In this document: positions 1,617 to 56,270 of the stretch, one piece after another
Layout: the number at the start of each line of letters is the position of its first letter
Position numbering within the stretch: position 1 is the first letter of the stretch
Assembly (NCBI GenBank): GCA_017983615.1
Contig: JAGOBB010000015.1
Coordinates: 1-58,173, forward strand
Direction: 5' to 3'
DNA length: 58,173 nucleotides
Source: Azonexus sp.
Lineage (GTDB): Bacteria; Pseudomonadota; Gammaproteobacteria; Burkholderiales; Rhodocyclaceae
Position numbers and translations under genes: made by a program
The notes under the pieces: model-generated
What the model was told of the DNA's origin: nothing
Databases searched by the model: none
What the model saw: the letters and a program-made list of their open reading frames with translations, nothing else

Positions 1617-1653
1617 AATGCTACGGTCGGCCCAAAAAAATGGCCAAAATCGG
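1617..1653 (+). repeat. Dispersed 40-bp repeat, copy 1
   Basis: AATGCTACGGTCGGCCC followed by an A-run, then TGGCCAAAATCGG. It lies in the spacer upstream of the MATE gene and directly abuts the heptamer array at 1657. It has the same head-to-tail structure as the copies at 15502, 19061 and 50760. Confidence 0.8.
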
Positions 1654-1656
1654 AAT

Positions 1657-1705
1657 TAGTCGGTAGTTGCTACCGACTACCGACTACCGACTAAATACTA
1701 CCTAG
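1657..1705. repeat. Degenerate heptanucleotide tandem array
   Basis: Seven consecutive 7-bp units in perfect register: TAGTCGG, TAGTTGC, TACCGAC (three times), TAAATAC, TACCTAG. The last unit contains the stop codon of the neighbouring hydrolase gene (1702-1704). A second array of the same design fills the tatA-tatB spacer. Confidence 0.8.
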
Positions 1706-2403
1706 ACGATCCGGGCACACAACGTCCCGACGCCGTCGACACCAGCTTCGAGCAGATCGCCCGGCACCACCGGCCCGACGCCGGCCGGCGTGCCGGTAAA
1801 AATCAGGTCACCGGCTTCCAGCCTGACCATCGTCGACAGGTTGGCGATGATGTCAGCCACCTTCCACATCATGGCCGACAGGTCGCCGTCCTGGCGCAGC
1901 TCGCCGTTGACCTTGAGCCAGATGCGGCCGCTAGCCGGATGGCCGCTCGCCGCCACCGGGCTGATCGCGCCGGCCACCGCCGACTGGTCGAAACCCTTGC
2001 CCATGTCCCACGGATGCCCCTTCTCCTTGGCCCTGGCCTGGATGTCGCGGCGGGTCAGGTCGAGGCCGACGGCGTAGCCGAAAATCAGGTCTTTTGCGGC
2101 ATCGACCGTAGCATTCTCGGCGCCGGCACCGAGAGCGACGACCATCTCCACTTCGTGATGCAGGTTGTGGGTCAGAGACGGATATTTGACGCAGACCTCA
2201 CCCACGCCGCCGACCACGGCGTCGCCCGGCTTGGTGAAGAAAAACGGCGGTTCGCGCCCCTCGGCCTGCGCGGTTGCCCCCATTTCGCGGGCATGGTCGG
2301 CGTAGTTGCGGCCGACGCAAAATACCCGGCGCACCGGAAAACGCAGTTCGCTACCGACGACCGGCAGGCTGGAAACGGGATGCGGAGCGAAGACAAAATC
2401 CAT
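1702..2403 (-). CDS. Fumarylacetoacetate hydrolase family protein (acylpyruvase/fumarylpyruvate hydrolase-like)
   Basis: The protein has 233 residues, the size of the small FAH-domain enzymes that hydrolyse acylpyruvates or fumarylpyruvate. Family features visible are RVFCVGRNYADHAREMG near the N-terminus, the metal-binding stretch HHEVEMVVALG at about residues 80-92, GYAVGLDLTRRDIQ, and the C-terminal GDLIFTGTPAGVGPV. The enzyme probably binds Mg or Mn and cleaves a C-C bond in a beta-diketone from aromatic-acid catabolism, but no pathway genes adjoin it, so the substrate is open. AGGAAG precedes the ATG. It is divergent from the FimV-like gene. Its codons 100-104 contain one core of the dispersed repeat. 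Confidence 0.8.
   Translation of the reverse strand: MDFVFAPHPVSSLPVVGSELRFPVRRVFCVGRNYADHAREMGATAQAEGREPPFFFTKPGDAVVGGVGEVCVKYPSLTHNLHHEVEMVVALGAGAENATVDAAKDLIFGYAVGLDLTRRDIQARAKEKGHPWDMGKGFDQSAVAGAISPVAASGHPASGRIWLKVNGELRQDGDLSAMMWKVADIIANLSTMVRLEAGDLIFTGTPAGVGPVVPGDLLEAGVDGVGTLCARIV
2103..2115 (-). repeat. Dispersed repeat core, copy 2 (inside the FAH gene)
   Basis: CGACCGTAGCATT, the 13-bp core only; the A-rich tail is poorly conserved here (TCTTTTGCGGCAT upstream). It encodes part of AENATVDAA. This is the weakest of the listed copies and could be chance. Confidence 0.4.
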
Positions 2404-2516
2404 GAGAGGCTTCCTGAACGGGGGACGAAATTCGAAGTTTGCAATATTTCACGGAGGCTCGGCCAGCCCGATGTTAAAGTTTGTTCCACACAAAACCGCA
2501 TGACATAAGACACGGC

Positions 2517-3533
2517 ATGATCGCTTCACGATCGCTGCGCATTCTCCCCTGGTGTGCCGCACTCCTCTCCAGTCAGGCCGCCGCCCTCGGACTCGGGGAA
2601 ATCAACCTCTACTCGCGCATCGGCGAACCGATCCGGGCCGAGATTCCCCTGCTCGCCGCCGGCGAACGGCTCGACCCCGCCTGCTTTTCGCTCGCCGCCA
2701 TTCCCGGCAGCGACATTCCGGCCATCACCGCCGGACGCATCCAGCTGCTTGGCGGCAACCGGCTGCTCATCACCGGCCGCGCCCCGGTCACCGAACCGGT
2801 CTTCATGATCAACGTCAAAGCCGCCTGCGGCCATGATCTGCAACGCGAATACACCCTGCTGCCACTCCCCCCCGAGAGCCAGGCGCAAAGCGATAACACG
2901 GTTTCGCCAGCCATCGTCGAACCCGCACCGCGCAAAGCCCGCCGGGTTCGACAAACAACGCCCGCTGACATTGACGGCGAACCGCTCCGCCAAGCCGCAA
3001 AACCCCGCCAGTCAAACGACGAACCGGCGATGGCCGAGCCGCGCCGACCGGCGAAGCCCCGGGCGGCGCTTGCCGAGCATGCGCCCGGCAAGGACAAGCT
3101 GGTGCTCGGCGCCGCCCTCGACCAGCTGCCGCCGCCGGCCGCCGGCGACCCGCTCGCTGCGGTCAATGACCTTGAAGAACGCATGTTGAAGATGGAAACG
3201 ACGCTGCATCTGATCAACGCACAAGTCGACAAACTGGATGCCGCCCTGGCCCTCGATGCCGAAGCCCGCTCCATGCGCCAGAAGCTGCAGGACATGCAGG
3301 CGCAGCAGACGGCACCCGGCATCGCGCCGCGTGTCGAAGCCAGCCCGCCCCCGGCGCCAGTCCGGACCGACAGCAGTCACGACGGCTGGGTCGAACTCGT
3401 TCTCGGCATCCTGCTCGGCGGCAGCGTTTCCGCCACCGTCGCCCATCTGGTCAGCCGCCGCCAGGACAACTCGCGACCTTTCGATCTGCCGCCGCCGCAC
3501 ATCGCCAAGCCGAAGCCCGTCGCAACGACCTGA
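2517..3533 (+). CDS. FimV N-terminal-domain-like envelope protein
   Basis: The 338-residue protein starts with a Sec-type signal peptide (MIASRSLRILPWCAALLSSQ, cut after AAA). The mature part starts LGLGEINLYSRIGEPIRAEI, which matches the N-terminal domain of FimV-type proteins. A Pro/Arg-rich linker follows, then a short coiled coil (about residues 220-265, EERMLKMETTLHLINAQVDKL) and one C-terminal membrane segment (GWVELVLGILLGGSVSATVA). No LysM motif or C-terminal TPR is seen, so it is much shorter than FimV. FimV proteins are polar/inner-membrane scaffolds for type IV pilus and secretion machinery; a similar role here is inference. The ATG at 2517 is preferred over an upstream TTG because it starts the signal peptide. 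Confidence 0.65.
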   Translation: MIASRSLRILPWCAALLSSQAAALGLGEINLYSRIGEPIRAEIPLLAAGERLDPACFSLAAIPGSDIPAITAGRIQLLGGNRLLITGRAPVTEPVFMINVKAACGHDLQREYTLLPLPPESQAQSDNTVSPAIVEPAPRKARRVRQTTPADIDGEPLRQAAKPRQSNDEPAMAEPRRPAKPRAALAEHAPGKDKLVLGAALDQLPPPAAGDPLAAVNDLEERMLKMETTLHLINAQVDKLDAALALDAEARSMRQKLQDMQAQQTAPGIAPRVEASPPPAPVRTDSSHDGWVELVLGILLGGSVSATVAHLVSRRQDNSRPFDLPPPHIAKPKPVATT

Positions 3534-3901
3534 GGCGCACGGCTACACCGGGTTGTCGAGATCGACGAACTCGCTGGCCCCGCCGCACGACTACGCCCCG
3601 CCCCCACATCTGCCGATGCCCCCTATGCCCTGCCACCGGGTATCGTTCAGAATCCCTCAAAAAATCACCGTCCCACCGATCACGCAGCGTGAAATATTTG
3701 TTTGCTGGACTAATTAAAAATGATTAGCCTCCATTTACTGTCCCCTACCTTCATCCTGTCCTCATTCAGTACAGCGACACGCATCGATGGGGGCGGCATC
3801 AGGAAGATCAGGCGCACACAAAGGCGCGGCCAGGCAGAGGATGCCATGGACCGAAACGCCGTGGCGCCAGCCTACAGAATGCGGTCGCACCGGAGAAAAT
3901 A
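3534..3901. other. Intergenic spacer, no gene recognised
   Basis: These 368 bases lie between the FimV-like gene and the CNB/DUF294 gene. There is an A/T-rich block around 3695-3725 that could hold a promoter, but no convincing -35/-10 pair, no inverted repeat and no ORF with coding character was found. The GGAG at 3892-3895 is the Shine-Dalgarno of the next gene. Confidence 0.6.
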
Positions 3902-5779
3902 GTGAACATGCCCAACCGCCTCGCCTTCAGCGAGGGCGAACCGTTTTGCCACCTCCCCGAGGACGACCTGGGCTGGCTCGCCAGCCGTATGGTCCAGGAA
4001 GACTACCCTGCAGGCCGGACAGTGCTCGCTGCCGGAACACCTGGGGACTATCTGTTTTTTATCGAGAGCGGCTATATCGCCCTCTTTCCAGAGATGGGTG
4101 ACACAGCTCTGGCCGAGCTGGTGCCTCGGGAATGTTTCCCCCTCGAAGCGCTTGAAGTTGGCAAGATCGTCAATGTCCGCTTCGACGCCTTGCAGGATTC
4201 AGTGTGCTGGCGCTTGAAAACAGACGACCTGCGCGAACTCTCACGACGCAACCCCCATTTCGGCAACCGTCTCGCCGCCCGCGCCCAATCCCTGTCGAAC
4301 CACACCAGCCGCCCGGCCCCTGTATCACCGCCCCAAGCGCAGGAACTCCCCATACCACAGACCCTGGCCGCCTGTGCCGGCCGGCCGGTGGCCGAGGTCG
4401 ATGCTGACGACGCATTGGTCTCCGCCCTCAAACGCTTGCGCGACGATGGCGCCCACCTGCTCATCGTACGCGACCGCAACGGTTGCCCGGCCGGCGCCTT
4501 TGGCTATGGCAACCTGCTTGACGCGGTGCTGGCAGGCAAAGCAGAGCTTACGACCGCGATCGCCGCGCGCATGAGCGCCTTGCCGCCATCACTGCCGGAA
4601 TCGACTTCAGTACACGAAGCAGCGGCGCTGATGTCGGAACGGGGCATCGACGAGATTCTGGTCGAAAGCTCCTCGCCGCGCCGGCGCCTGCGAGTCGTCA
4701 GTCATCCCGAGCTGCTGGCAGCCGACGCGGCACGTTTTGGCTGGCTTCGGCACCGCCTCGCCAACTCGGACTCCAGCCGCGCCCTGCAGATGGCTGCCAA
4801 GGATATTCAGGCCTATTCGGCCCAACTCCTCGGCCAGGGAGTCGCCGCCTGGCAGGCAACGCAAATCGTCTCCAACCTGAGCGACCAATTGGCGCGGCGG
4901 GTGATCGAAGTCGAATTCGCCCAGGAAGAACTCACCGGCCTCGACCAGCTGGCGTGGATCGTCATGGGCAGCCAGGGGCGCCACGAACAGACGCTGCTGA
5001 CCGACCAGGATAACGGCATCATCTTCACGCCCCGCGATCCGGCCGCCACAGAGGCTGTGCGGGAAACCCTGCTGCGCGCTGCGAAACGGGTCAAACAGAC
5101 CCTCGCCAACTGCGGCATCCCGCTGTGCGAGGGCGGCATCATGGGCGGCAACCCTCGCTGGTGCCTGACCCTGAACGAATGGAAGACCCAGTTTCGGCAA
5201 TGGCTCCAAGTACCAGAGCCGGATGCGATCCTCAACGCCACCATTTTTTTCGATCTCCGCCACCTGTGGGGGGATGGAACGCTAACCGCAGAACTGACCC
5301 GCGAGGTTGCCACCCAGGCCCCAGACAGCCATCGCTTTCTCCGCCTCCTGGCAGAAACTGCCCTGTTGCGCTCGGTGCCCATCGGCTTCTTTCGAGATTT
5401 CCGTGTGGATCGTGACGCCGAACCGCCCAACAGCATCGACCTCAAGCAAGGCGTGCTGGCCGTCTTCGTCGATGCGGCCCGTCTCTATGCCCTGCGCCAT
5501 GGCATCCACGAGCAGGCCACGGCGGGACGACTGCTCGCCCTGGGCGCCGCCGGCCACCTACCGGGCAAGGAGGCGGCAGCTCTGGTGGAGGCCTTCCGCT
5601 TCCTGCAGTCCCTGCGTCTGCGCCTGCAGCACGAGACCTTGGCCCGCGGCAAGAAACCGGGCAACCGGGTCGCCCCCTACGACCTCAACGACCTGGATCG
5701 GCGCTTTCTGCTCGAAGCCCTGCGCCAGGCGGCGCGGTTTCATAAGCGCATCAGCCTCGACTTCTCCCTCGCTGGCTGA
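3902..5779 (+). CDS. Cyclic-nucleotide-binding/CBS/DUF294 nucleotidyltransferase-like signalling protein
   Basis: The 625-residue cytosolic protein has three parts. Residues about 10-130 form a cNMP-binding-like beta barrel (PAGRTVLAAGTPGDYLFFIESG). Residues about 155-275 hold a CBS pair (VSALKRLRDDGAHLLIVRD; TSVHEAAALMSERGIDEILV). From about residue 300 there is a DUF294 region with the nucleotidyltransferase signature MGSQGRHEQTLLTDQDNGII, then the DUF294 C-terminal domain. Such proteins are thought to sense nucleotides and possibly transfer nucleotides, but the reaction is unproven. The start is GTG at 3902, six bases after GGAG; an ATG at 3908 is the alternative. No partner gene adjoins it. 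Confidence 0.8.
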   Translation: MNMPNRLAFSEGEPFCHLPEDDLGWLASRMVQEDYPAGRTVLAAGTPGDYLFFIESGYIALFPEMGDTALAELVPRECFPLEALEVGKIVNVRFDALQDSVCWRLKTDDLRELSRRNPHFGNRLAARAQSLSNHTSRPAPVSPPQAQELPIPQTLAACAGRPVAEVDADDALVSALKRLRDDGAHLLIVRDRNGCPAGAFGYGNLLDAVLAGKAELTTAIAARMSALPPSLPESTSVHEAAALMSERGIDEILVESSSPRRRLRVVSHPELLAADAARFGWLRHRLANSDSSRALQMAAKDIQAYSAQLLGQGVAAWQATQIVSNLSDQLARRVIEVEFAQEELTGLDQLAWIVMGSQGRHEQTLLTDQDNGIIFTPRDPAATEAVRETLLRAAKRVKQTLANCGIPLCEGGIMGGNPRWCLTLNEWKTQFRQWLQVPEPDAILNATIFFDLRHLWGDGTLTAELTREVATQAPDSHRFLRLLAETALLRSVPIGFFRDFRVDRDAEPPNSIDLKQGVLAVFVDAARLYALRHGIHEQATAGRLLALGAAGHLPGKEAAALVEAFRFLQSLRLRLQHETLARGKKPGNRVAPYDLNDLDRRFLLEALRQAARFHKRISLDFSLAG

Positions 5780-5788
5780 GGCCCCGCT

Positions 5789-6535
5789 TCAAACTGGATT
5801 AGGTATATCGACAAAGGTGCAATCCAGGCCGAAGCGCTCGGCCAGATGGCCTGCCAGCGCGCGAACGCCAAAACGTTCAGTGGCATGGTGGCCGCAGGCG
5901 AGATAGGCAACGCCACTTTCTCGCGCCAGATGGGTAGTCTGCTCCGATATCTCGCCCGAAACGTAGGCGTCGACGCCCAAGGCGATGGCCTGCTCGAAAT
6001 AGCCCTGAGCGCCGCCGGTGCACCAGGCGATACGACGAATTTTGTGCTCGCCTTCGCCGATAAGCAGGGGTTCGCGCCCCAGGGCGCCGGCCAGCCGAAG
6101 CCGCAACTGCTCGGCTGAAAGCTCCGTAGCAGGTCTGCCTAGCCAGGCGATGTCCTGTTCGCCAAAACGACCCTCAGACTCCCAGCCCAGGCTGGCCGCC
6201 AGTTGGGCGTTGTTGCCCAACTCCGGGTGCGCATCAAGTGGCAGGTGGTAGGCGAGCAGGTTGATGTCGTTGGCCAGCAAGGTCGCCAGCCGCTTGCGGC
6301 GAATGCCGGTCACCCGGCCATCCTCGCCCTTCCAGAACCAGCCGTGGTGCACCAGGATGGCATCAGCATGACGCTCGACCGCCGCATCCAGCAGCGCCTG
6401 GCTGGCCGTGACGCCCGCCACGATGCGGACGATCTCTGGACATCCTTCCACTTGCAGACCATTTGGGCAATAATCCCTGAACTTTCCGGGCTGCAACAGC
6501 CCGTCCAGATAGCTCACCAATTCTTCGCGCTTCAT
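5789..6535 (-). CDS. Nif3-like dinuclear metal centre protein (YbgI family)
   Basis: The 248-residue protein matches the family length. Metal-ligand motifs visible are [11 protein letters not shown] near residue 60 and the C-terminal [14 protein letters not shown]. coli YbgI is a toroidal hexamer with a dinuclear metal site; cofactor or GTP cyclohydrolase-like roles have been suggested for relatives but no reaction is settled. The start [10 protein letters not shown] at 6535 fits the family; a reading frame open 14 codons further upstream would run into the divergent protease gene. The two start codons are only 14 bp apart. Confidence 0.85.
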
Positions 6536-6549
6536 CGAGACAATTTTCC

Positions 6550-7701
<1,152 letters not shown>

Positions 7702-7707
7702 GCCGCG

Positions 7708-8511: not shown

Positions 8512-9333
8512 TCAGGACAGCTTGCGGAAATCTTCTTCCGCCTGGTCCATCTCGGCATCCATTTTTGCCGAATTTTCGGGGGTGACCGTAGCATTTGCCA
8601 CGACCGGTGCAGGCCGCGACACAAAGCGGGAGGCCAGGATGCCCAGCTCGTAAAGCAGGCACATCGGGATGGCCAGCGCCAGCTGCGAGACGACGTCCGG
8701 CGGCGTGACCACGGCGGCGACGACAAAGGCGCCAACGATGAAGTAGGAACGCCATTCCTTGAGCTTCTCGACGGTCACCACGCCGAGCTTGACCAGCACG
8801 ACCAGCGCTACCGGCACCTCGAAGGCGATGCCGAAGGCAAGGAACATGGTCATCACGAACGACAGGTAGGCCTCGATATCCGGCGCCGGCGTGATGCTCT
8901 TCGGGGCAAAGCTGTTGATGAAACCGAAGACCTGCCCGAACACGAAGAAATAACAGAACGACATCCCGGCCACGAACAGCAGCGTGCTGGAAATGATCAG
9001 CGGAATGCCCAGGCGCTTTTCATGGGCATAGAGGCCCGGCGCAATGAAGCCCCAGGCCTGGAAGAGGATGAACGGCAGCGCCAGCACGAAAGCGACCATG
9101 GCAGTGACCTTGAGGGGCACCATGAACGGCGTGATGACGCCGATGGCGACCATCTTCGTGCCTTCTGGCAGCGCCTTGGTCAGCGGTGCGGCCAGGATGT
9201 CGTAGATTTCACCGGGACCGGGATAGATGCACAGGACGCCGAGCACCACGGCGACGGCGATCAGGCTGCGCAGCAAGCGGTCGCGCAGTTCGACCAGGTG
9301 CGAGATGAAGGAGTCTTCCTGGGCAGCGCTCAT
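8512..9333 (-). CDS. tatC: Twin-arginine translocase subunit TatC
   Basis: The 273-residue inner-membrane protein has six predicted helices. The N-terminus [19 protein letters not shown] and the stretch [21 protein letters not shown] are TatC hallmarks; TatC with TatB binds twin-arginine signal peptides of folded exported proteins. The gene overlaps tatB by 4 bp (ATGA). The C-terminal tail after the last helix (about residues 238-273) is longer than in many TatC proteins, and part of it (ANATV) is encoded by a copy of the dispersed 40-bp repeat, so that tail may be a late addition. Confidence 0.97.
8561..8599 (-). repeat. Dispersed 40-bp repeat, copy 3 (inside the tatC 3' end)
   Basis: ATTTTTGCCGAATTTTC, then GGGGGTGACCGTAGCATTTG. 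The whole head-plus-tail structure is recognisable on the minus strand, with one change in the core (GTCAC for GTCGG). It is translated in the tatC tail. Confidence 0.7.
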
Positions 9334-10004: not shown

Positions 10005-10014
10005 GATGTGTCTC

Positions 10015-15501: not shown

Positions 15502-15539
15502 GCAAATGCTACGGTCGGCCCTAAAAAAGGGCAAAAATC
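15502..15539 (+). repeat. Dispersed 40-bp repeat, copy 4
   Basis: GCAAATGCTACGGTCGGCCC followed by TAAAAAAGGGCAAAAATC. It is a full-length copy. Its end overlaps the stop codon of the chrA gene at 15538. Confidence 0.85.
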
Positions 15540-16056
15540 AGATCAGGCCAAACAACCCGAGCCCTGCACCGACACCGATCAGCCATAGCGGGTGCAGTTT
15601 CGTCCGCAGATTGACGACGACCGTTACGCCGACCAGCGCCCAGGCCGCCCAGCCGAAAGCCGCCGCCTGCGCAATCAGCGTCGCCCCCGAGAAAACCAGC
15701 CCGACGGCGAGCGGCGCAACACCGATGCTGACCGCCTTCTGCCAGCGCTTGCCGGCGAAGCTTTCCCAGCGGTCGATCAACAGGTAGATCAGCACGCTCA
15801 TCGGCAAACACATGGCCAGCGTCGCCGACAACGCGCCGGCCAGCCCGGCGATTTCCCAGCCGATCAGCGTGACGACCAGCACATTCGGCCCCGGCGCCGC
15901 TTGGGCGATGGCGTAAAGGTGAGTGAAAGTGGCGTCGTCCAGCCAGTGATGGTTTTCGACCACGACGCGGTGCATTTCCGGCAGCAGGGCCGTGGCGCCG
16001 CCAAAGGCAACCAGGGCGAGCAAGGCGAATTCGAGGAACAGTTCGACGACGATCAC
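15538..16056 (-). CDS. Chromate transporter, short-chain CHR subunit (second of pair)
   Basis: The 172-residue membrane protein begins MIVVELFLEFALLALVAFGG, with MHRVVVENHHWLDDATFTHLYAIAQAAPGPN, which corresponds to the GFGG and PGPN signatures of one CHR domain. Short-chain CHR proteins work as a heterodimer of two half-size subunits that together efflux chromate. It overlaps the partner gene by 4 bp. The end of the gene is formed by a dispersed repeat copy. Its location between hisD and hisB suggests insertion into the histidine operon. Confidence 0.85.
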   Translation of the reverse strand: MIVVELFLEFALLALVAFGGATALLPEMHRVVVENHHWLDDATFTHLYAIAQAAPGPNVLVVTLIGWEIAGLAGALSATLAMCLPMSVLIYLLIDRWESFAGKRWQKAVSIGVAPLAVGLVFSGATLIAQAAAFGWAAWALVGVTVVVNLRTKLHPLWLIGVGAGLGLFGLI

Positions 16057-19060: not shown

Positions 19061-19104
19061 CAAATGCTACGGTCGGCCCGAAAAAAAGGCCAAATTCGGC
19101 ATTT
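19061..19104 (+). repeat. Dispersed 40-bp repeat, copy 5
   Basis: CAAATGCTACGGTCGGCCCG, an A-run, then GGCCAAATTCGGCATTT. It is a full-length intergenic copy between the csp promoter and the murA tail remnant. Confidence 0.85.
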
Positions 19105-22204: not shown

Positions 22205-22486
22205 TCAGGCGAGGGGCAGCAGTTCGGTGACGCCGTAAAGTTCGGCCAGCGCCCGGACGCCACTTGGAATTTTGGCAAATTTTACGTCCGACCGTAGCAT
22301 TTCTGCCGCCCGCAACCAGCCGAGCATGACCGCGATGGCCGACGAGTCGGCTTCCGTGACCTCGGAAAAATCAAACACCTGTTCGCCCGGCTGCAAAGCA
22401 GCACGGCCTGCTTCAAGCAGGCCGCGCGCATTGGCCATGGTCAGGGGCACCTTGACCAGCAGGCGCCCCGCTTCACGTTCGATCAT
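22205..22486 (-). CDS. mlaB: STAS domain protein MlaB
   Basis: The 93-residue STAS-fold protein has DFSEVTEADSSAIAVMLGWLRAA, the core STAS motif. MlaB binds MlaF on the cytoplasmic side and is needed for activity of the MlaFEDB phospholipid transporter. It overlaps mlaC by 4 bp. A copy of the dispersed repeat lies in frame at about residues 60-73 (AEMLRSDVKFAK). Confidence 0.88.
   Translation of the reverse strand: MIEREAGRLLVKVPLTMANARGLLEAGRAALQPGEQVFDFSEVTEADSSAIAVMLGWLRAAEMLRSDVKFAKIPSGVRALAELYGVTELLPLA
22266..22306 (-). repeat. Dispersed 40-bp repeat, copy 6 (inside mlaB)
   Basis: GGAATTTTGGCAAATTTTAC, then GTCCGACCGTAGCATTTCTG. The tail and core are both recognisable on the minus strand. 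It is translated within MlaB. Confidence 0.7.
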
Positions 22487-30703: not shown

Positions 30704-31960
30704 ATGAGCCTGTTGATGGATGCCCTGAAACGGGCGGAAACCGCCAAGCAGGAGAGCGGTCGGACGCAATTCAGCCAGCCAGGCGCGGTGCCGGACGACG
30801 GTCTCAGCCTGGAACCCATCCCGGGCGAAACCTCGCGGACCAACGCCAATCCGCTGCCGGATCTCGCCTCGCATCTCGATGCGGTCGATGCCGACCTGGC
30901 TAGCGCAGCCCTTCCGGCTGCGCGGCCCGCCAATGTACCGAACCGCCCTCCCCCTCCGCCGGCCACGGCACCCAGCGAACCACGCGAGGCCGTGCGCAAC
31001 GCTTTCGCGGCGAAACTGACCAGCCAGCCGCCGTCGCGCCTGCCGCTATGGCTGGCACTGGGGACGCTTGGCCTGGCCGGCCTCGGCATTGGCGGCTATG
31101 TCTGGTACCAGATGAGCGCGATGAACCGTGGCACGCTGGCTGCCGGTTCGCAGCCCGCGGCAGCCAGGCAAACACCGCCGCCTTCGCCGGCGGTGCCGGC
31201 CGTACCGATTACGCCGCCTGCGGTTTTTGCCCCTTCCGGGCAGCCGACCGTAGCATTTGCCCCGGCGCCGCCCGAAACGCCGCTTTTTGCGCCGCGCCGC
31301 GATAGCCGTCCGGCGCCGCCGCCAAGCGACGACGAAGTGCAGTCCAACCAGCCGATTCGTCTCGTTCGCACCCGCCCGGAACTCGATGCCCATCTCGTCC
31401 GTGGCCATGCCACACTGGAGCGCGGCGAAATGGAAGCGGCGCGCCGCGAGTTCGAGCAGGTCCTGCAACGCGACCCGAACAGCACCGACGCCTTGCTCGC
31501 CCTGGCCGCCATCGCCCAGCGCCAGGGCCGCACGGGCGACGCCGATGGTTTGCGTCAGCGGGCGCTGATCGCCAACCCGAGCGACGCTGCAGCACAGGCC
31601 GCGACGCTGAGCGGCACGGCCGCCGAAGCCGACCCGCAAACGGCCGAAAGCCGCCTGAAGACACTGCTCTCGTCACAACCCGAATCGGCCGCACTCAACT
31701 TCGCGCTGGGCAACCTGTATTCCCGCCAGAGTCGCTGGGCAGAAGCACAGCAGGTCTATTTCAACGCCGTTGCCGCCGACGGCGACAACCCGGACTATCT
31801 GTTCAACCTCGCAGTCAGTCTCGACCACCTGCGCCAGCCGCGCCTGGCCGCCCAGCATTATCGGCTGGCCCTCGATGCCTCGGGCAAGCGCCCGGCCGGC
31901 TTCGACCGCGACAAGGCGCAGAAGCGCCTGAGCGAACTGCAAGCCGAGTCGCCGCACTGA
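30704..31960 (+). CDS. mshN: TPR pilus biogenesis protein (MshN-like)
   Basis: The 418-residue protein starts MSLLMDALKRAETAKQESGR, the conserved cytosolic start of MshN/GspB-like proteins. A membrane segment follows (LGTLGLAGLGIGGYVWYQM, about 115-135), then a Pro/Ala-rich periplasmic linker and about four TPR units from residue 225 on (ATLERGEMEAARREFEQVLQ, and further). The linker carries an in-frame copy of the dispersed repeat (about residues 174-187). It lies 9 bp after mshL. Confidence 0.82.
   Translation: MSLLMDALKRAETAKQESGRTQFSQPGAVPDDGLSLEPIPGETSRTNANPLPDLASHLDAVDADLASAALPAARPANVPNRPPPPPATAPSEPREAVRNAFAAKLTSQPPSRLPLWLALGTLGLAGLGIGGYVWYQMSAMNRGTLAAGSQPAAARQTPPPSPAVPAVPITPPAVFAPSGQPTVAFAPAPPETPLFAPRRDSRPAPPPSDDEVQSNQPIRLVRTRPELDAHLVRGHATLERGEMEAARREFEQVLQRDPNSTDALLALAAIAQRQGRTGDADGLRQRALIANPSDAAAQAATLSGTAAEADPQTAESRLKTLLSSQPESAALNFALGNLYSRQSRWAEAQQVYFNAVAADGDNPDYLFNLAVSLDHLRQPRLAAQHYRLALDASGKRPAGFDRDKAQKRLSELQAESPH
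31222..31262 (-). repeat. Dispersed 40-bp repeat, copy 7 (inside mshN)
   Basis: GGTTTTTGCCCCTTCCGGGC, then AGCCGACCGTAGCATTTGCC. Here the repeat is antisense to its orientation in tatC and mlaB. It encodes part of the Pro-rich linker (FAPSGQPTVAFAP). Confidence 0.75.
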
Positions 31961-34876: not shown

Positions 34877-36381
34877 GCAGCCGCCTTCTCTACCTCAATG
34901 CCCAGCGCCTCTCGGCTTTTGCCTGGCAGGGCGGCCGCCTGCTGGCGGAGGGCGTCTTCGCCAGCGACGACGACGGCCTTCGGCAGTTTGCCGAGTATCT
35001 GACGGGGCACAGCGGCAGCGACTTCTCGCTGCTGGCCAACGTCGCCGAGGAAGGCCATGTCCAGGAACTGATTCCCTTCCTGCGCGGCGCCGACCGGCAG
35101 GCGCTGATCACTCGCAAGATCGGCCAGCACTTCCTCGGCACCTCGCTGGCGGCGGCCATCTCCCTCGGCTACGAGAAAACCCAGCGCAAGAATGAACGGG
35201 TTCTGCTCTCCGCACTGACCAACCCGGCGCATTTCGCGCCCTGGCTGCAAGCCATCGATACCGCCGAAGTCCCGCTCGCCGGCATCTACACCGTCGCCCA
35301 GCTGGGCGGCCAGCTGCTGAAAAAAATCGGCCAGAATGCCGGCCGCTGCCTGCTGCTGACGCTGCAGGATCAGTCGATCCGCGAAAGCTACCTGGTGGGC
35401 GGTCACGCCCATTTTTCGCGCATGGCGCCGCTGACCGACAGCAGCATCGGCGGCATCGCCCGCAGCTTCGCCGCCGAGGCGAGCAAGCTGCACCAGTATC
35501 TGATCGGCCAGCGCCTGATCGGCCGCGACGATGTCCTGCCGGTCTACATCGTCGCTCATCCGCTGAGCATCCCGGCCATCGAAAATGCCTGCCCGCCCCA
35601 GAGCCAGCTCGACTTCACGATCATCGACAGCCATGCCGCGGCGGCCCAGCTCAAGCTGCACACGCTGCCTGAGGACAACCGCAGCGACCAGCTGTTCCTG
35701 CACTTGCTGGCCACCGCGCCACCCAACCAGCAATTCGCCGGCGAGGCACATCGCCATCACTACCGGCTGGCCCAGATCCGCCACGGCCTGATCGCCGCCG
35801 GCCTGGTCGCCCTGCTCGGTGGCGCGCTGTTCGCCGCCAAAAACACTTTCGACGCCCACGCCCTGCGCGATGAGGCCGTTCGCCTGAAGGCCGAGGAGAC
35901 CGACCTCGCCCGGCGCTACCAGGAAATCTCGGCCACCTTCCCACAACTGGGCGTCGACAATGACACCCTGCGCCGCCTGACCGGCCGCTACGGCGAACTG
36001 CTGCGCCAGCAACGCCAGCCCGGCCCGGCCTACGCCCAGGTCAGCAGGGTACTCGACCGCATGCCGGCCATCGTGCTCGAAGGCATCGACTGGAAAAATG
36101 GCCAAAATATGCCATCGACCGTAGCATTTGCGGCCGACAACCCCGAAATCACCACCGTCCGCGCCTCGGTGCGTCTCGAACGCGCCGACACCCGGCAAAC
36201 CCTCGCCGTCTTCGAGCAATTCGTCGATGCGCTGAAAGGCGAGCCGGGCGTCACGGTCAAAGTGCTGCAACGCCCGTTCGACGTCGAATCCGGCACCGCC
36301 CTGCGCGGCGGCGACGGCATCGACGAAGCGGCGCCAGCCCGACCCTTTGCCGTCGAAATCACCCGGAGCAGCGCGCCATGA
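34873..36381 (+). CDS. mshI: MshI-like pilus assembly protein (PilM/PilN- or GspL-like)
   Basis: The 502-residue protein has a cytosolic actin-fold-like N-terminal part to about residue 300 (ALITRKIGQHFLGTSLAAA; QDQSIRESYLVGG), a single membrane helix (HGLIAAGLVALLGGALFAAK, about 303-322) and a periplasmic coiled coil and ferredoxin-like end. That is the layout of PilM and PilN joined, or of GspL. It starts with GTG overlapping the mshG stop. An in-frame dispersed-repeat copy encodes about residues 407-420. Confidence 0.75.
   Translation: MSSRLLYLNAQRLSAFAWQGGRLLAEGVFASDDDGLRQFAEYLTGHSGSDFSLLANVAEEGHVQELIPFLRGADRQALITRKIGQHFLGTSLAAAISLGYEKTQRKNERVLLSALTNPAHFAPWLQAIDTAEVPLAGIYTVAQLGGQLLKKIGQNAGRCLLLTLQDQSIRESYLVGGHAHFSRMAPLTDSSIGGIARSFAAEASKLHQYLIGQRLIGRDDVLPVYIVAHPLSIPAIENACPPQSQLDFTIIDSHAAAAQLKLHTLPEDNRSDQLFLHLLATAPPNQQFAGEAHRHHYRLAQIRHGLIAAGLVALLGGALFAAKNTFDAHALRDEAVRLKAEETDLARRYQEISATFPQLGVDNDTLRRLTGRYGELLRQQRQPGPAYAQVSRVLDRMPAIVLEGIDWKNGQNMPSTVAFAADNPEITTVRASVRLERADTRQTLAVFEQFVDALKGEPGVTVKVLQRPFDVESGTALRGGDGIDEAAPARPFAVEITRSSAP
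36092..36132 (-). repeat. Dispersed 40-bp repeat, copy 8 (inside mshI)
   Basis: GGAAAAATGGCCAAAATATG, then CCATCGACCGTAGCATTTGC. The tail is partly inverted relative to other copies. It is translated in the periplasmic region of MshI. Confidence 0.65.
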
Positions 36382-49354: not shown

Positions 49355-49360
49355 AATTTG

Positions 49361-50031: not shown

Positions 50032-50041
50032 TCTGCCTGAA

Positions 50042-50065: not shown

Positions 50066-50106
50066 GTCGTTTCATCCGCACCACCCTACATAAACTGGAG
50101 ATGATG

Positions 50107-50679: not shown

Positions 50680-50699
50680 TTCGGCGCCTCCCGGCCAGC

Positions 50700-50729
50700 A
50701 AAATGCCCGCGAAATTCGCGGGCATTTTT
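50700..50729 (+). terminator. Rho-independent terminator after the phasin genes
   Basis: AAAATGCCCGCGAA, one base, TTCGCGGGCATTTTT. It is a perfect 14-bp stem with U-run. Confidence 0.88.
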
Positions 50730-50759
50730 ACGTCTACCAGCTTTACGTCTGCCGGCTAC

Positions 50760-50806
50760 GAATTTTGATTTTCGGCTTTTTTTCGGGCCGACCGTAGCAT
50801 TTGCCC
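50760..50806 (-). repeat. Dispersed 40-bp repeat, copy 9
   Basis: GAATTTTGATTTTCGGC, a T-run, then CGGGCCGACCGTAGCATTTG. It is a full-length intergenic copy, 22 bp past the stop of the CinA-like gene. Confidence 0.85.
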
Positions 50807-50828
50807 GGCCGCTGCCCGAATGGCGCTT

Positions 50829-51593: not shown

Positions 51594-52324
51594 ACCCGCT
51601 CTCCCTCAATGGTGACAATGGCACCGCCGCGCGAGCGGCGCAGGGCTTCCAGCCCGTAATGGACGAATGATAGCGCGGCCAGCGCCGGCACCAGCAGGCC
51701 GACGACCGGCACGTGGGCGAGCAGCGCCATGGTCAGGCCGAGCATGAACAGCGGCGTTTTCTGGCGCTGGCGAATTTCCTGCCACTCGCCGGCCGTGGCG
51801 TGCATTGACAAGGCGTCGTAGGCGAAGGTGCGACGGTTCAGCCAGCCCATCAGCAAGAGCGGCATCAGCAGCGAGAACCCGGGGATCAGCCAGAGCGGTA
51901 TGGTCACGATCCAGCCGACGACGAACAGCGCCGAGGCCAGCACGCTGTTGGCCGCCGCCGCGACGAAGCTGTCCTTGCCCATCGCCGCCACGTCGCGATA
52001 CTCGGTTTCCGTCAGGTGCTTGAGCATCAGCGGCAGGATCACGATGGCGGCGAGCAGCGAGGCCGTCAGGTAGGCGACGGCGAAGATCGCCAGCCAGCCG
52101 CCGAGGTAGGCCAGCAGATGGGCCAGCCAGACCAGCCCCCAGCCGACCAGCAGGGTCATCGGCGGGTAGTCCATCATCTGCTGCACGACAGCGCCGAGCG
52201 CCCAGATCGCCAGCCCGACCGACAGCAGCAGCGAGAACAGCGCCGGGGTCAGCACGTACAGCCAGACCTTGCCGTCCTTCAGGTTGGCGAAGGTTCTCGC
52301 CAGTGCCAGCATGACCTCAGCCAT
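51590..52324 (-). CDS. EI24 domain membrane protein (CysZ-like superfamily)
   Basis: The 244-residue protein has about five to six helices. LLAAIVILPLMLKHLTETEY and IVTIPLWLIPGFSLLMPLLLMGWLNRRTFAYDALSMHA are EI24 family traits. The E. coli relative CysZ is a sulfate permease; the substrate here is unknown and no cys gene adjoins. It overlaps hrpA by 8 bp and the CinA-like gene by 4 bp. Confidence 0.8.
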   Translation of the reverse strand: MAEVMLALARTFANLKDGKVWLYVLTPALFSLLLSVGLAIWALGAVVQQMMDYPPMTLLVGWGLVWLAHLLAYLGGWLAIFAVAYLTASLLAAIVILPLMLKHLTETEYRDVAAMGKDSFVAAAANSVLASALFVVGWIVTIPLWLIPGFSLLMPLLLMGWLNRRTFAYDALSMHATAGEWQEIRQRQKTPLFMLGLTMALLAHVPVVGLLVPALAALSFVHYGLEALRRSRGGAIVTIEGERV

Positions 52325-55300
52325 TCTTGATGCCCTCCCATTGTTTCTGCAGACGCTTCGTGGACACCGGCACCGGCGTCCGCAGCTCCTGAGCGTACAG
52401 GCCGACGCGCAATTCCTCCAGCAGCCAGCGGAACTGCTCGACCTGCGGATCGAGCGTACCCAGCTTAGCCAACTGGAGGGCCCGACGTTCGTAGTTGGTC
52501 CACAGCGGGCCGTATTCGGCCATCAATTGCGCATCGCGCGCCGGGTTGGCTTTCAGCTTGTCGAGACGGACGACGATCGCCTTCAGGTAGCGCGGGTAAT
52601 GCTGCAGGCGCTCGAAGGGGGTATCGACGACGAAGCTCTTGCCGAGCAAGCGCTTCAACTGCGCCTCAATGTCGGCCAGCGCCGCGGCATGCGCCTTGAA
52701 GGCCGGCAGTTTCTTGGTCACCGCCTGCCACTCGGTCAGCACGGAGACGACCATCCGGCAGACCTCCTGCATGATCAGCCCGAGCCGCGCCTTGGCTTCG
52801 CCACAGCGGGCCTTGAAGGCATCCGGCGTGGTCGGCAGCGGTTCGGTCAGGCAGGCGCGCTCGAAGGTCAAATCGACGATCTGGCGCTTCAGTTCGTCGG
52901 TGCTGCCCAGCGCCATGAACTGCATGCCCATCTGGCTCATGCCCGGCACGTTCTTGTCGAAATACTTCACCTGCTCTTTGAACTGCAGCATGAACAGGCG
53001 GGCCAGGCCCTTGCGGTGGGTTTCGGCGGCTTCCTCGGCCGAGTCGAAGACCTTCAGGCTGACCGTCTCGCCGTCATCGACCAGCGCCGGGTAGCCGATC
53101 ACCGTCTGCTTGCCGACCGGGACTTCCATCAGTTCCGGCAGTTCGCCGAAGGTCCAGTCGGTCAGCTGGGTGTATTCGGACGGCGTCTCATGCAGTTCGG
53201 CGAATTCCTCCTTGGCCTCGCGCCCCCACTCGCCGCGCAGGGCGACCAGGCTGCGGTTCATGTCCAGTTGGCGGCCGTGTTCGTCAATCAGCTTGTAGTT
53301 CATCGAGAAGTGCGGCGGCAGCGCATCGGGCCGGAAGGCGTCCGGCGTTACCGCCCAGCCGCGGGCATTCAGGCCGCGCGCTTCGAGGATGTAGTCGATC
53401 AGCGGCGGGATCAGCCCCTGGTTCATCTTCTTGTCGTGGCCGGCGGTGGCGGCGATGAACTCCTCGACGAACTCCGGCACCGGCACCAGCTTGGCGCGGA
53501 TTTTCTGCGGCAGCGTCTTGATCAGCTGCACCAGTTTTTCCTTCAACAGCCCGGGCACCAGCCATTCCATGCGCAGCACCGGAATCTGGTTCAGTTGCGC
53601 CAGCGGCAGGGTCAAGGTCACGCCGTCGCGCGGCGAACCCGGCTCGAAGTGGTAGCTCAGCCCGTATTCGACGCCGCCGACCTTGATCGTGTGCGGGAAA
53701 GCATCGGTCGTCACGCCGGCCGCCGAGTGGCGCATCAGGTCGTCCTTGGACAGGAACAGCAGCCTGGCGTTTTCCTGCTCGGCGGTCTTGCGCCAGTGGT
53801 CGAAGGTGGCGCCGTTGTGGATGCCCTCGGGAATGATGTGGTCGTAGAAGGCGAAGATCAGCTCGTCGTCGACCAGCACGTCCTGCCGGCGCTGCTTGTG
53901 CTCGATCTTCTCGATGTCGCGAATCTGCCGCTGGTTGTGCTGGAAGAAGGGCCAGCGCTTGGCGAAACTCTCGTCGATTTCCTCGCCGACCAGGCCCTGG
54001 CGGATGAAGATTTCGCGCGCCTCGGCCGGGGCCAGTGGGCCGTAATGGATACGCCGCTTGGGGTTGATCACGATGCCGTAGAGCGTCGTCCGCTCCCAGC
54101 CGGCGACCTGCATCGATTTCTTTTCCCAGTGCGGGTCGAAGTACTGGCGCTTGATCAAGTGAGCGCCCACTTTCTCGATCCAGCCATCCTCGATGCGGGC
54201 GACGCAGCGGCCAAACAGGCGTGTCGTCTCGGTGATCTCGGCCGCCATGATCCACTTGCCGGCCTTCTTTTGCAGCGGCGACGACGGGTGGATCAGGTAG
54301 CGGATGCCGCGCGCCCCGAGGTAATAGCCGGACTCGTCCGACTTGCAGCCGATGTTGCCCAACAGGCCGCTGAGCAGCGCCATGTGGATGGCGTCGTAGG
54401 TGCCGGGCAGCTCGTTTTCCTTCCAGCCCAGCTCAGTGACCATGGCGTGCAGCTGGCCATGCACTTCGCGCCATTCGCGCAGCCGCAAATACGACAGGAA
54501 ATGGGCGTGGCAGTTGTCGACCAGCGATTTGTTCGATTTCTTGTGCTCGACGGCATTCTGGAACCAGGCCCACAGCTTGACCCAGCCGAGGAATTCCGAC
54601 TTCTCGTCGGCAAACTGCTTGTGCTTCTCGTCGGCTGCCTGCTGACGCTCCTGCGGCCGCTCGCGCGGGTCCTGCGTCGATAGCCCAGCGGCGATGATCA
54701 GCACTTCGGTCAGGCAGCCGAGGTCGCGGGCGGCGACCAGCATGCGGCCGATGCGCGGGTCGAGCGGCAGCCGGGCCAGCGCGTCGCCGACCTTGGTCAG
54801 CTTGTTGTCGTCGTCCAGTCCGCCGAGTTCCTGCAGCAGCGCGTAGCCGTCGCTGATCGCCTTGGCCGGCGGCGGCTCGATGAACGGAAAGCTCTCGACG
54901 TCGGTCAGCTTCAGCGCCTTCATGCGCAGGATGACGCCGGCCAGCGAGGAGCGGAGGATCTCCGGGTCGGTGAACGGCGGGCGGGCGTTGAAGTCGGCCT
55001 CGTCGTACAGGCGCACGCAGACGCCAGCCGCCACCCGGCCGCAACGGCCGGCCCGCTGGCGCGCCGCCGCCTGCGAAATGGGCTCGACCTGCAACTGCTC
55101 GACCTTGTTGCGGTAGGAGTAGCGCTTGACCCGGGCCAGCCCGGTGTCGATCACGTAGCGGATGCCCGGCACGGTCAGCGAAGTTTCGGCGACATTGGTC
55201 GCCAGCACGATGCGCCGCTGGCCGCCCGAGGGCTTGAAGATGCGGTCCTGATCCCCCGCCGACAGGCGCGAGAACAGCGGCAGGATTTCCGGCGCGTGGG

Positions 55301-56270
55301 CCGACGACAAGCCGGGCCGGGCCAGCGCGTGCTTGCGCAGGGCTTCGGCCGCCTCGCGGATTTCCCGCTCGCCGGGCAGGAAGACCAGGATGTCGCCGGA
55401 ACCGAGCCTGGAAAGCTCGTCGGCTGCATCGACAATCGCATCGTAGAGATCGCGCTCGTCGTCCTTCTTGTTGATATCGACGACCGGCCGGTAACGCACC
55501 TCGACCGGGAAGAGCCGGCCGGACACCTCGATCACCGGCGCGCCGCTGAAATGCTGCGAAAAGCGCTCGGCGTCGATGGTCGCCGAGGTGATGATCAGCT
55601 TGAGGTCCGGGCGCTTGGGCAGCAACTGCTTCAGGTAACCGAGCAGGAAGTCGATGTTCAGGCTGCGCTCGTGCGCCTCGTCGATGATGATCGCCTCGTA
55701 GGCGTTCAGGTAGGGGTCCGACTGCGACTCGGCGAGCAGGATGCCATCGGTCATCAGCTTGACCCAGCTCTCCGGCGTCGACTTGTCGTGGAAGCGGATC
55801 TTGACGCCGACCCCGGCGCCGACTTGCGTCTTCAGTTCCTGCGCCAGGCGCGTCGCCACCGAGCGGGCGGCCAGCCGACGCGGCTGGGTGTGGCCGACCA
55901 GGCCGCGGGCGCCGATACCGAGATCGAGGCAGATTTTCGGCAACTGCGTCGTCTTGCCCGAGCCCGTCTCGCCGCAGACGATGACCACCTGGTTTTTCGC
56001 GATCAGCTCGGCAATGTCGGCCCGGCGTTCATTGACCGGCAGGTCGCTCTGGAATTCAGGCTTCGGCAGCTTGCCGCGGCGGGCGGCGACAGCAGCCTGC
56101 GACTGGGCCACCAGGGCCGCGAAATCGGCCTGCGGTTTTTGCCGTTTTTCAGGGGCCGACCGTAGCATTTCGCGCTGCAGGGCCAGCAGGCGGCGCGCAT
56201 CCGCCGTCAGGCACTGGCTTTCTGGCGCGGCTGGCCGGAACGAGGAGTTGGAACGTTTGCTTGGAGTCAT
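52317..56270 (-). CDS. hrpA: ATP-dependent RNA helicase HrpA
   Basis: The 1317-residue DEAH-box helicase matches the E. coli length. Motifs seen are I VVIVCGETGSGKTTQLPK (about residue 100), Ia TQPRRLAARSVATRLA, II IIDEAHERS, III ITSATIDAERFSQHF, V VLATNVAETSLTVPG and VI QRAGRCGRVAAG. The long DUF3418 C-terminal half is present. HrpA helps rescue stalled ribosomes. The ATG at 56270 lies 4 bp after the intI stop, without a clear Shine-Dalgarno, so its expression may depend on intI read-through. Codons 35-48 are formed by a dispersed-repeat copy. Confidence 0.96.
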   Translation of the reverse strand: MTPSKRSNSSFRPAAPESQCLTADARRLLALQREMLRSAPEKRQKPQADFAALVAQSQAAVAARRGKLPKPEFQSDLPVNERRADIAELIAKNQVVIVCGETGSGKTTQLPKICLDLGIGARGLVGHTQPRRLAARSVATRLAQELKTQVGAGVGVKIRFHDKSTPESWVKLMTDGILLAESQSDPYLNAYEAIIIDEAHERSLNIDFLLGYLKQLLPKRPDLKLIITSATIDAERFSQHFSGAPVIEVSGRLFPVEVRYRPVVDINKKDDERDLYDAIVDAADELSRLGSGDILVFLPGEREIREAAEALRKHALARPGLSSAHAPEILPLFSRLSAGDQDRIFKPSGGQRRIVLATNVAETSLTVPGIRYVIDTGLARVKRYSYRNKVEQLQVEPISQAAARQRAGRCGRVAAGVCVRLYDEADFNARPPFTDPEILRSSLAGVILRMKALKLTDVESFPFIEPPPAKAISDGYALLQELGGLDDDNKLTKVGDALARLPLDPRIGRMLVAARDLGCLTEVLIIAAGLSTQDPRERPQERQQAADEKHKQFADEKSEFLGWVKLWAWFQNAVEHKKSNKSLVDNCHAHFLSYLRLREWREVHGQLHAMVTELGWKENELPGTYDAIHMALLSGLLGNIGCKSDESGYYLGARGIRYLIHPSSPLQKKAGKWIMAAEITETTRLFGRCVARIEDGWIEKVGAHLIKRQYFDPHWEKKSMQVAGWERTTLYGIVINPKRRIHYGPLAPAEAREIFIRQGLVGEEIDESFAKRWPFFQHNQRQIRDIEKIEHKQRRQDVLVDDELIFAFYDHIIPEGIHNGATFDHWRKTAEQENARLLFLSKDDLMRHSAAGVTTDAFPHTIKVGGVEYGLSYHFEPGSPRDGVTLTLPLAQLNQIPVLRMEWLVPGLLKEKLVQLIKTLPQKIRAKLVPVPEFVEEFIAATAGHDKKMNQGLIPPLIDYILEARGLNARGWAVTPDAFRPDALPPHFSMNYKLIDEHGRQLDMNRSLVALRGEWGREAKEEFAELHETPSEYTQLTDWTFGELPELMEVPVGKQTVIGYPALVDDGETVSLKVFDSAEEAAETHRKGLARLFMLQFKEQVKYFDKNVPGMSQMGMQFMALGSTDELKRQIVDLTFERACLTEPLPTTPDAFKARCGEAKARLGLIMQEVCRMVVSVLTEWQAVTKKLPAFKAHAAALADIEAQLKRLLGKSFVVDTPFERLQHYPRYLKAIVVRLDKLKANPARDAQLMAEYGPLWTNYERRALQLAKLGTLDPQVEQFRWLLEELRVGLYAQELRTPVPVSTKRLQKQWEGIKNG
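56133..56170 (-). repeat. Dispersed 40-bp repeat, copy 10 (inside the hrpA 5' end)
   Basis: CGGTTTTTGCCGTTTTTCAG, then GGGCCGACCGTAGCATTT. It is a full-length copy translated as part of MLRSAPEKRQKPQAD near the HrpA N-terminus, before the helicase core. Confidence 0.8.

What the first reader, a model, noticed from the sequence alone, without database searches (positions are those of the whole stretch)
1617..56170. A dispersed 40-bp repeat with core AAATGCTACGGTCGGCCC occurs about ten times in 58 kb
Copies were found by eye at 1617, 2103 (core only), 8561, 15502, 19061, 22266, 31222, 36092, 50760 and 56133. The form is GCAAATGCTACGGTCGGCCC, then an A-run, then GGCCAAAATC. The core is nearly invariant, the tail less so. 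It has no stem, so it is not a classical REP, and it sits both in spacers (1617, 15502, 19061, 50760) and inside genes (tatC, mlaB, mshN, mshI, hrpA) without breaking them. In genes it is read in either direction. It could be an uptake signal, a chromosome-organisation site, or a spreading repeat that adds linker peptides.
Basis: seen in the sequence. Interest (0 to 1): 0.85.

Follow-up and report, generated by a model that had tools for sequence, protein, structure and literature searches.

The report
Likely DNA-uptake tags in a betaproteobacterium
A 40-base sequence repeated hundreds of times in this bacterium looks like a password that tells the cell's DNA-import machinery "this is our own DNA", a kind of tag that I found described only in two other bacterial families, and relatives carry different versions of the password at the same places in the same genes.

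Summary
All ten copies exist, plus a weak eleventh, and the genome carries 409 (<=3 mismatches of 18) against 1 for the reversed control. It is the most over-represented 9- and 12-mer in 400 kb of this genome. Anatomy: core AATGCTACGGTCGGCC, then A/T tracts about one helical turn apart. In 760 kb, perfect 11-mer cores outnumber single-mismatch ones 124 to 28. Copies lie on both strands, more evenly spaced than random, enriched in spacers.

Inside genes it did not insert: in 27 comparisons with relatives lacking it, none was shorter by >=20 bp. Related species carry "dialects" (ACGGTCAACCGG, ACGGTCGACCG), often at the same codons. 23 of 76 genus genomes hold 70 or more copies of a shared pattern and 31 fewer than 10; 285 other family genomes have at most 3 each.

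Best explanation: a DNA uptake signal sequence, maintained by biased uptake plus recombination. It resembles Pasteurellaceae USS in build and Neisseriaceae DUS in having dialects, but has its own core. Uptake was not measured and no receptor is identified. The insertion-repeat and chromosome-site readings are not supported.

The parts
1616..1655 (+). copy 1, in spacer, 60.5 bits
2077..2116 (-). copy 2, core plus degraded tail (30.9 bits), inside the gene at 1702-2403
   Evidence: relatives have CAATGTGACGGTCGACGC (G340) and AAATGTTACGGTCGACGC (G281) at the site
8557..8596 (-). copy 3, inside tatC (8512-9333)
   Evidence: no motif in G347 and G314, ACGGTCAACC in G340 and GCGGTCAACC in G281
15504..15543 (+). 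copy 4, core in spacer, tail touches a gene end
19062..19101 (+). copy 5, in spacer by my gene calls
22263..22302 (-). copy 6, inside mlaB-like STAS gene (22205-22486)
   Evidence: other dialect at the same codons in G340, G281 and G147, no motif in G347 and G314
31219..31258 (-). copy 7, inside mshN-like TPR gene (30704-31960)
   Evidence: other dialect at the site in G340 and G281
36090..36129 (-). copy 8, inside mshI-like gene (34873-36381)
   Evidence: other dialect at the site in G340 and G281
50763..50802 (-). copy 9, in spacer
   Evidence: other dialect at the site in G281
56131..56170 (-). copy 10, inside hrpA-like helicase (52317-56273), near its 5' end
   Evidence: other dialect at the site in G281

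Best explanation
The repeat is a DNA uptake signal sequence. Inferred mechanism: a surface receptor of the competence pilus binds the ACGGTC-centred core, and the helically phased A/T tracts help to bend or melt the DNA for passage through the outer membrane. DNA from close kin is therefore imported and recombined preferentially. Because fragments that happen to carry a good copy are imported more often, copies accumulate by point mutation wherever selection allows. When the receptor's preference drifts, the whole set of sites drifts with it and dialects appear. Shown here: the repeat, its anatomy, its origin by substitution in genes, its distribution, its dialects, and the presence of comEC, dprA and type IV pilin genes. 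Inferred: binding, preferential uptake, and the receptor.
For: Top over-represented 9- and 12-mer without prior choice: AATGCTACGGTC 63 vs 0.22 expected in 400 kb. Perfect 11-mer 124 vs 28 single mismatches; reversed control 0 and 8. Core plus A/T tracts with centres about 10.5 bp apart. Strands 73/75; spacing CV 0.775 vs 0.988 random (p = 0.0008); the smallest spacing is 462 bp, and 0 of 5000 random placements had one that large. Spacer enrichment 61 of 156; convergent 2.6, divergent 0.23 per kb. Genic copies against relatives lacking it: 0 of 27 shorter by >=20 bp, 26 of 27 within 6 bp. At own genic sites a dialect is present in 13 of 14 comparisons with motif-rich G340/G281 and in 2 of 28 with motif-poor G347/G314. 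A second dialect with the same tail and spacing and graded abundance over the genus. Largest motif-free gap in C20 is mostly the ribosomal protein operon (recognised by eye). No plasmid match for the one dialect tried, 2 exact viral contigs for the own 16-mer, one half-length chance-level phage match. comEC, dprA, pilins with ComP_DUS and GspH hits.
Against: No uptake measurement exists. Density (about 140/Mb at <=3 mismatches, calculated) is several-fold below the roughly one per kb reported for H. influenzae and Neisseria (PMC1626085, passages). comEC is found in 71 of 76 and ComP_DUS in 70 of 76 genus genomes, rich and poor alike, so known machinery does not predict the motif; motif-rich G328 even has its comEC split. 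No receptor stands out: four-cysteine ComP-like pilins occur in rich and poor genomes, and the best hit in rich G310 is the two-cysteine type. Intergenic sites often differ in length between species, so substitution is shown for genes only. A fourth, GCGGTCGACCGC dialect is weakly supported: G293 has only 25 full-pattern matches although GCGGTCGAC is 79 vs 18 expected in 260 kb. Of the 31 genomes with fewer than 10 copies, only G347 (460 kb) and G314 (60 kb) were scanned for other words, so the rest may carry unseen dialects.
Confidence: 0.85

Rival explanations
1. A chromosome-organisation or recombination site bound by a nucleoid, segregation or repair protein (like matS, KOPS or Chi).
For: Hundreds of copies, evenly spaced, both strands, A/T tracts that could bend DNA.
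Against: No significant leading/lagging bias (65:83, p = 0.16) and no clustering near the skew switch in C20. 31 of 76 congeners have fewer than 10 copies of the shared pattern. Absent from the ribosomal operon and rare in divergent spacers. At least three dialects within one genus.
Confidence: 0.07
2. A mobile or self-spreading short repeat (REP/MITE-like) that inserts into spacers and genes.
For: Many near-identical 40-bp copies; some intergenic sites in relatives are 17-43 bp shorter.
Against: In genes 0 of 27 motif-lacking orthologous stretches are shorter by >=20 bp. A and T are interchangeable in the tracts, which copying would not give. Dialects change in place.
Confidence: 0.03
3. A self-DNA label read by a defence system or nuclease rather than by the uptake machinery.
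For: Near-absent from the viral, phage and plasmid collections with the patterns tried; abundant only in some members of one genus in the genomes searched.
Against: About one copy per 5 kb is sparse for protecting a chromosome from a nuclease; the excess of perfect copies, spacer enrichment and dialect turnover are what biased uptake plus recombination predicts. No such defence system was looked for.
Confidence: 0.03
4. A regulatory or RNA element, for example a terminator.
For: Enriched in convergent spacers.
Against: 95 of 159 copies lie inside genes, in both orientations (49 same, 46 opposite); no close inverted pairs in C20 (smallest spacing 462 bp).
Confidence: 0.02

Closest known systems
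Uptake signal sequence (USS) of Pasteurellaceae (Hin AAGTGCGGT, Apl ACAAGCGGT; PMC1626085 and PMC7811141, passages)
   Same: Core followed on one side by two A/T-rich segments about one helical turn apart; most over-represented 9-mer; more perfect than single-mismatch copies; clade-specific variants with a conserved inner part. The CGGT of ACGGTC is also in both USS types, and Apl's 10-mer ACAAGCGGTC ends in GCGGTC.
   Different: Core is AATGCTACGGTCGGCC or ACGGTCAACCGG, not the 9-bp USS; the first tract seems to start further from CGGT (USS layout recalled); Hin and Apl 9-mers are not enriched here (1 and 3 in 760 kb); lower density; a betaproteobacterium; uptake not tested.
DNA uptake sequence (DUS) dialects of Neisseriaceae (PMC3630211, abstract and one section)
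   Same: Several dialects in one clade sharing a conserved inner core, each abundant in its own genomes; some lineages without the repeat; a ComP_DUS-family pilin is encoded.
   Different: No GCCGTCTGAA enrichment (2 in 760 kb); flanking A/T tracts, which Neisseria lacks (PMC1626085 passage); fewer copies (about 300-630 per rich genome by my patterns, against 943-5,918 reported for DUS); a 16-40 bp element rather than a 10-12 bp word.
REP/BIME and other dispersed bacterial repeats (recalled)
   Same: Dispersed, abundant, present in spacers.
   Different: Arises by substitution in genes and is found inside genes in both directions; no conserved stem is visible in the own-genome consensus (by eye; no folding was run).

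Membership tests
Bacterial DNA uptake sequences (general class) | Most over-represented short word of the genome | tested here: met
   (400 kb of the genome)
Bacterial DNA uptake sequences (general class) | Perfect copies outnumber single-mismatch copies | tested here: met
   124 vs 28 in 760 kb; reversed control 0 vs 8
Bacterial DNA uptake sequences (general class) | Both strands, dispersed and evenly spaced | tested here: met
   73/75; CV 0.775 vs 0.988
Bacterial DNA uptake sequences (general class) | Copies arise by point mutation, not insertion | tested here: met
   0 of 27 genic comparisons shorter by >=20 bp; intergenic sites unresolved
Bacterial DNA uptake sequences (general class) | Genome encodes competence machinery | tested here: met
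   comEC, open frame 867 aa, dprA, type IV pilins; comEA, comM and pilQ not searched
Bacterial DNA uptake sequences (general class) | Cells take up DNA bearing the sequence preferentially | not testable with these tools
   needs an uptake assay
Pasteurellaceae USS | Core AAGTGCGGT or ACAAGCGGT | tested here: not met
   1 and 3 copies in 760 kb
Pasteurellaceae USS | Core plus two A/T segments one helical turn apart | tested here: met
   tract centres about 10.5 bp apart; the second dialect has the same layout
Neisseriaceae DUS | GCCGTCTGAA-type 10-mer with CTG core | tested here: not met
   2 copies in 760 kb
Neisseriaceae DUS | Clade-specific dialects | tested here: met
   an unrooted eight-taxon tree separates the three AATGCTACGGTCGGCC genomes and pairs the two ACGGTCAACCGG genomes
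Neisseriaceae DUS | ComP minor pilin as receptor | tested here: inconclusive
   PF16732 hit (37-38 bits) with four cysteines in own genome, but PF16732 is in 70 of 76 genus genomes irrespective of motif
REP / MITE-type mobile repeat | Inserted copies (target longer than the empty site) | tested here: not met
   (genes)
Chromosome-organisation sites (KOPS, Chi, matS) | Strand bias or clustering relative to origin or terminus | tested here: not met
   leading 65, lagging 83, p = 0.16, in one 760-kb stretch spanning a skew switch; the rest of the chromosome was not examined for this

The most novel reading that the evidence does not exclude
This is a third DNA-uptake-sequence system, in a betaproteobacterial genus outside Neisseriaceae and Pasteurellaceae. 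It combines Pasteurellaceae-like build (CGGT inner core plus phased A/T tracts) with Neisseriaceae-like dialects. Its dialects changed in place at homologous sites, while other species of the genus lack the motif, some with comEC split by an integrated element. Uptake specificity then acts as a shifting mating barrier, and the genus is a natural series for finding the receptor.
Probability: 0.72. Interest if true: 0.88.

Novelty: new variant of a known kind. Interest (0 to 1): 0.82.

Why it matters
Uptake sequences are among the few clear cases where a bacterium marks its own DNA for sexual exchange. The papers I saw describe them for Neisseriaceae and Pasteurellaceae; one (PMC4212676, passages) suspects sequence-limited uptake in another betaproteobacterium, with no motif named in the passages I saw. 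The Pasteurellaceae receptor is still a computational prediction (PMC12616744, abstract). A further lineage with motif-rich, intermediate and motif-poor species in one genus, several dialects, and homologous sites that carry different dialects allows direct tests of how specificity arises, changes and dies, and of which pilin reads the tag. It also warns that residues at such sites may be dictated by the uptake word and not by protein function. Practically, adding the tag could help to transform these environmental bacteria in the laboratory.

Tried and rejected
Receptor hunt: ComP_DUS (PF16732) is in 70 of 76 genus genomes. Pilin loci were fetched from 19 genomes plus own; 20 pilins were aligned. 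Four-cysteine ComP-like pilins occur in 9 of 10 motif-rich and in 4 of 10 poor or intermediate genomes of that set, but only the best-scoring PF16732 locus per genome was taken and the set was hand-picked, so I draw no conclusion.

comEC presence as a predictor: 71 of 76 have it, rich and poor alike. A comparable motif hidden in poor genome G347: none of similar strength in 460 kb; its strongest 12-mer, CAAAAGAAAGTA (9 vs 0.01), was not followed up. A GCGGTC dialect as a major class: no further rich genome appeared; the high counts are cross-matches of genomes already rich in ACGGTCAACCGG-type copies.

Names: the unnamed collection gives none. Rhodocyclaceae, perhaps Azonexus/Dechloromonas, is my guess and was not tested.

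Papers: ten searches showed me no report of these cores. Searches found 0 papers with the long core words. In one search, 25 papers held at least one of five short words; I saw titles and abstract starts of the 20 listed, none on this subject, and opened none of them.
Full report
OBSERVATION. The 18-mer AAATGCTACGGTCGGCCC occurs 8 times in the 58-kb window with up to 3 mismatches (0.03 expected; 0 of 100 shuffles reached 8). The genome (2.92 Mb in 34 contigs, 85.7% complete) has 200 forward and 209 reverse matches at up to 3 mismatches; the reversed control has 1 and 0. Without choosing a motif beforehand, a scan of all 9- and 12-mers in 400 kb of contig C20 puts this word first: TGCTACGGT 72 vs 5.1 expected, AATGCTACGGTC 63 vs 0.22.

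ANATOMY. From 134 exact ATGCTACGGTC copies in 760 kb of C20 plus the window: AATGCTACGGTC, then G(83%) G C C and two positions mostly C or G, then six positions 78-94% A/T, then N-G-G-C/G-C, then A-A-A-A-T (85-100% A/T), then C/T-G/C-A-A-A. The contig is 62% G+C. A and T replace each other freely inside the tracts (AAAAAA, AAATTT, TTTTTT), which speaks for a shape requirement and not for copying of a fixed unit. The two main tracts are centred about 10.5 bp apart, one helical turn. The copies form a discrete class: C20 counts fall only from 151 to 135 as the matrix threshold rises from 8 to 20 bits, with 0 in the reversed control at every threshold tried (the matrix was built from copies in the same sequence). 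Perfect 11-mers outnumber single-mismatch ones 124 to 28 in C20, although 33 single-mismatch words are possible; the same excess is described for Pasteurellaceae USS (PMC1626085, passages).

DISTRIBUTION. C20 has 73 plus and 75 minus copies, mean spacing 5.1 kb. Spacing is more even than random (CV 0.775; random 0.988 +/- 0.080, p = 0.0008). The smallest spacing is 462 bp; none of 5000 random placements had one that large. With my own simple gene caller (90% coding), 95 of 159 copies are genic, 61 intergenic and 3 at boundaries; 61 of 156 exceeds the roughly 10% intergenic share (p about 3e-22). Convergent spacers hold 2.6 per kb, co-directional 1.1, divergent 0.23. In genes one reading frame dominates on each strand (36 of 49 and 31 of 46). 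The largest motif-free gap (24 kb) is mostly the ribosomal protein operon, recognised by eye from protein starts; the other large gaps were not identified. Around the GC-skew switch near C20:400 kb, taken as an origin, there is no significant strand bias (leading 65, lagging 83; my sums, test).

NOT AN INSERTION. In syntenic relatives, the stretches of tatC, mlaB, mshN, mshI and hrpA that hold the motif are matched with the motif present, replaced by another dialect, or absent, and no relative lacks a 40-bp piece there. mlaB and hrpA align without gaps; in tatC, mshN and mshI some relatives are 3-12 bp shorter, and tatC of G281 has 27 extra bases beside its motif. Example, mlaB: own AATGCTACGGTCGGACGTAAAATTTGCCAAAATTCC; G340 AATCTCACGGTCAACCGTAAAATTTGCCCAAATTCC; no motif in G347 and G314. 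Across C20 plus the window, 27 genic comparisons (24 distinct own sites) pair an own copy with a relative lacking it: 0 relatives are shorter by 20 bp or more, 26 of 27 differ by at most 6 bp (the other is 13 bp shorter), 24 by a multiple of three. This used alignments of at least 400 bp, which did report length differences of 36-43 bp elsewhere. Intergenic sites are less clear: 3 of 4 comparisons with G347 and 1 of 2 motif-lacking ones with G340 are 17-43 bp shorter.

DIALECTS. The same k-mer scan of 400 kb of G340 (same genus; some stretches were chosen because they held near-matches) gives ACGGTCAACCGGAAAAAA on top (CCGGTTGACCGT 33 vs 0.19), with the tail NGGCCAAAATTGAAAT at the same spacing (74 matches at <=2 mismatches of the 13-mer, some of which look like chance). 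The top 9-mer is ACGGTCGAC in 40 kb of G147, ACGGTCAAC in 60 kb of G281 and GCGGTCGAC in 260 kb of G293 (79 vs 18). A shared pattern, ACGGTCRRCCNNAWWWWNNGNCNAAA with up to 2 mismatches, over the 76 genus genomes held: 23 have 70 or more (up to 634), 22 have 10-69, 31 have fewer than 10; controls at most 4 per genome (my tally of its rows). The low genomes were not searched for other words, apart from G347 and G314. The own dialect itself is rich in only 3 of 76 (G000 308, G360 256, G342 177). Among 285 other genomes of the family none exceeds 3, and a class sample of 369, searched for the own dialect only, gives at most 1 outside G000. At own genic sites, 13 of 14 comparisons with G340/G281 and 2 of 28 with G347/G314 carry a dialect. 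An unrooted tree of 14 window proteins separates the three own-dialect genomes from the rest and pairs the two ACGGTCAACCGG genomes (eight taxa, G147 and G360 incomplete). In this small set dialects follow kinship, and homologous sites carry different dialects.

MACHINERY. comEC has an open frame of 867 aa at G000:C23:224510 and dprA lies at C20:412065. A ComP_DUS-family pilin (37-38 bits, four cysteines) sits beside a GspH/FimT-type pilin at the start of C23. None of these separates motif-rich from motif-poor genomes (comEC and ComP_DUS; pilin cysteines; dprA was searched in the own genome only). I did not search for comEA, comM or pilQ.

ELSEWHERE. Viral contigs: 0 for the second dialect with a strict tail and 2 for the own 16-mer. 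Plasmids: no match for the second dialect. Phages: one half-length chance-level match to the own dialect. The ordinary DUS and USS words are not enriched.

MECHANISM. The simplest reading is an uptake signal sequence: a receptor with a sequence preference imports tagged DNA more often; recombination then fixes new and better tags by point mutation wherever protein function tolerates it; the result is an even, two-stranded scatter, rich in tolerant spacers and absent from the most constrained operon. A genome under such a drive shows more perfect than near-perfect copies, and when the receptor's preference changes the sites change in place. These signs are seen. Binding and uptake are inferred.

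KNOWN AND NEW. PMC7811141 (passages) and PMC3630211 (abstract and one section) describe uptake sequences in Pasteurellaceae and Neisseriaceae. My ten paper searches showed none for this lineage; they cover open-licence papers only. This element is not a member of either family: the defining cores were tested and not met. It works like both, with the A/T-tract build of USS and the dialects of DUS. I therefore file it as a new variant of a known kind.

LIMITS.

Noticed in passing
L199-L201 (G347:C1:2218.7-2251.2 kb); L266/L267 (G328:C33 about 109.6 and 143.3 kb); L268 (G308:C8): In G347 a 32-kb, lower-G+C element (0.525 vs 0.643), beginning with what looks like a large serine recombinase (by eye, no family search), splits comEC inside the codons for HLMSISGLH. 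G328 shows the same target on both sides of a roughly 34-kb interval, and G308 a near-identical right-hand junction, so elements seem to integrate repeatedly into this competence gene.
   Followed up: partly
G304:C1:1477-1554 kb: In a genome with only 24 matches to the shared pattern, 8 of them (two overlapping at one place) cluster in about 77 kb, possibly DNA acquired from a motif-rich relative.
   Followed up: no
L124:11422/11443 and L121:12180/12216 (G340): The G340 dialect forms some close inverted pairs (back to back and facing), which the own genome lacks in C20.
   Followed up: no
L252-L264 (G293): The GCGGTCGACCGC word of G293 is a perfect palindrome, as is ACGGTCGACCGT of G147, unlike the asymmetric core of the window's genome; the G293 comEC match is split over two contigs and one piece has a stop inside.
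   Followed up: no
window:56131-56170: The copy in the hrpA-like gene lies near its 5' end and supplies an in-frame ATG that my gene caller took as the start, although a longer frame begins upstream; automatic start calls at such copies may be wrong.
   Followed up: no
L189-L208 (G347): CAAAAGAAAGTA occurs 9 times against 0.01 expected in 460 kb of motif-poor G347; its nature is unknown.
   Followed up: no
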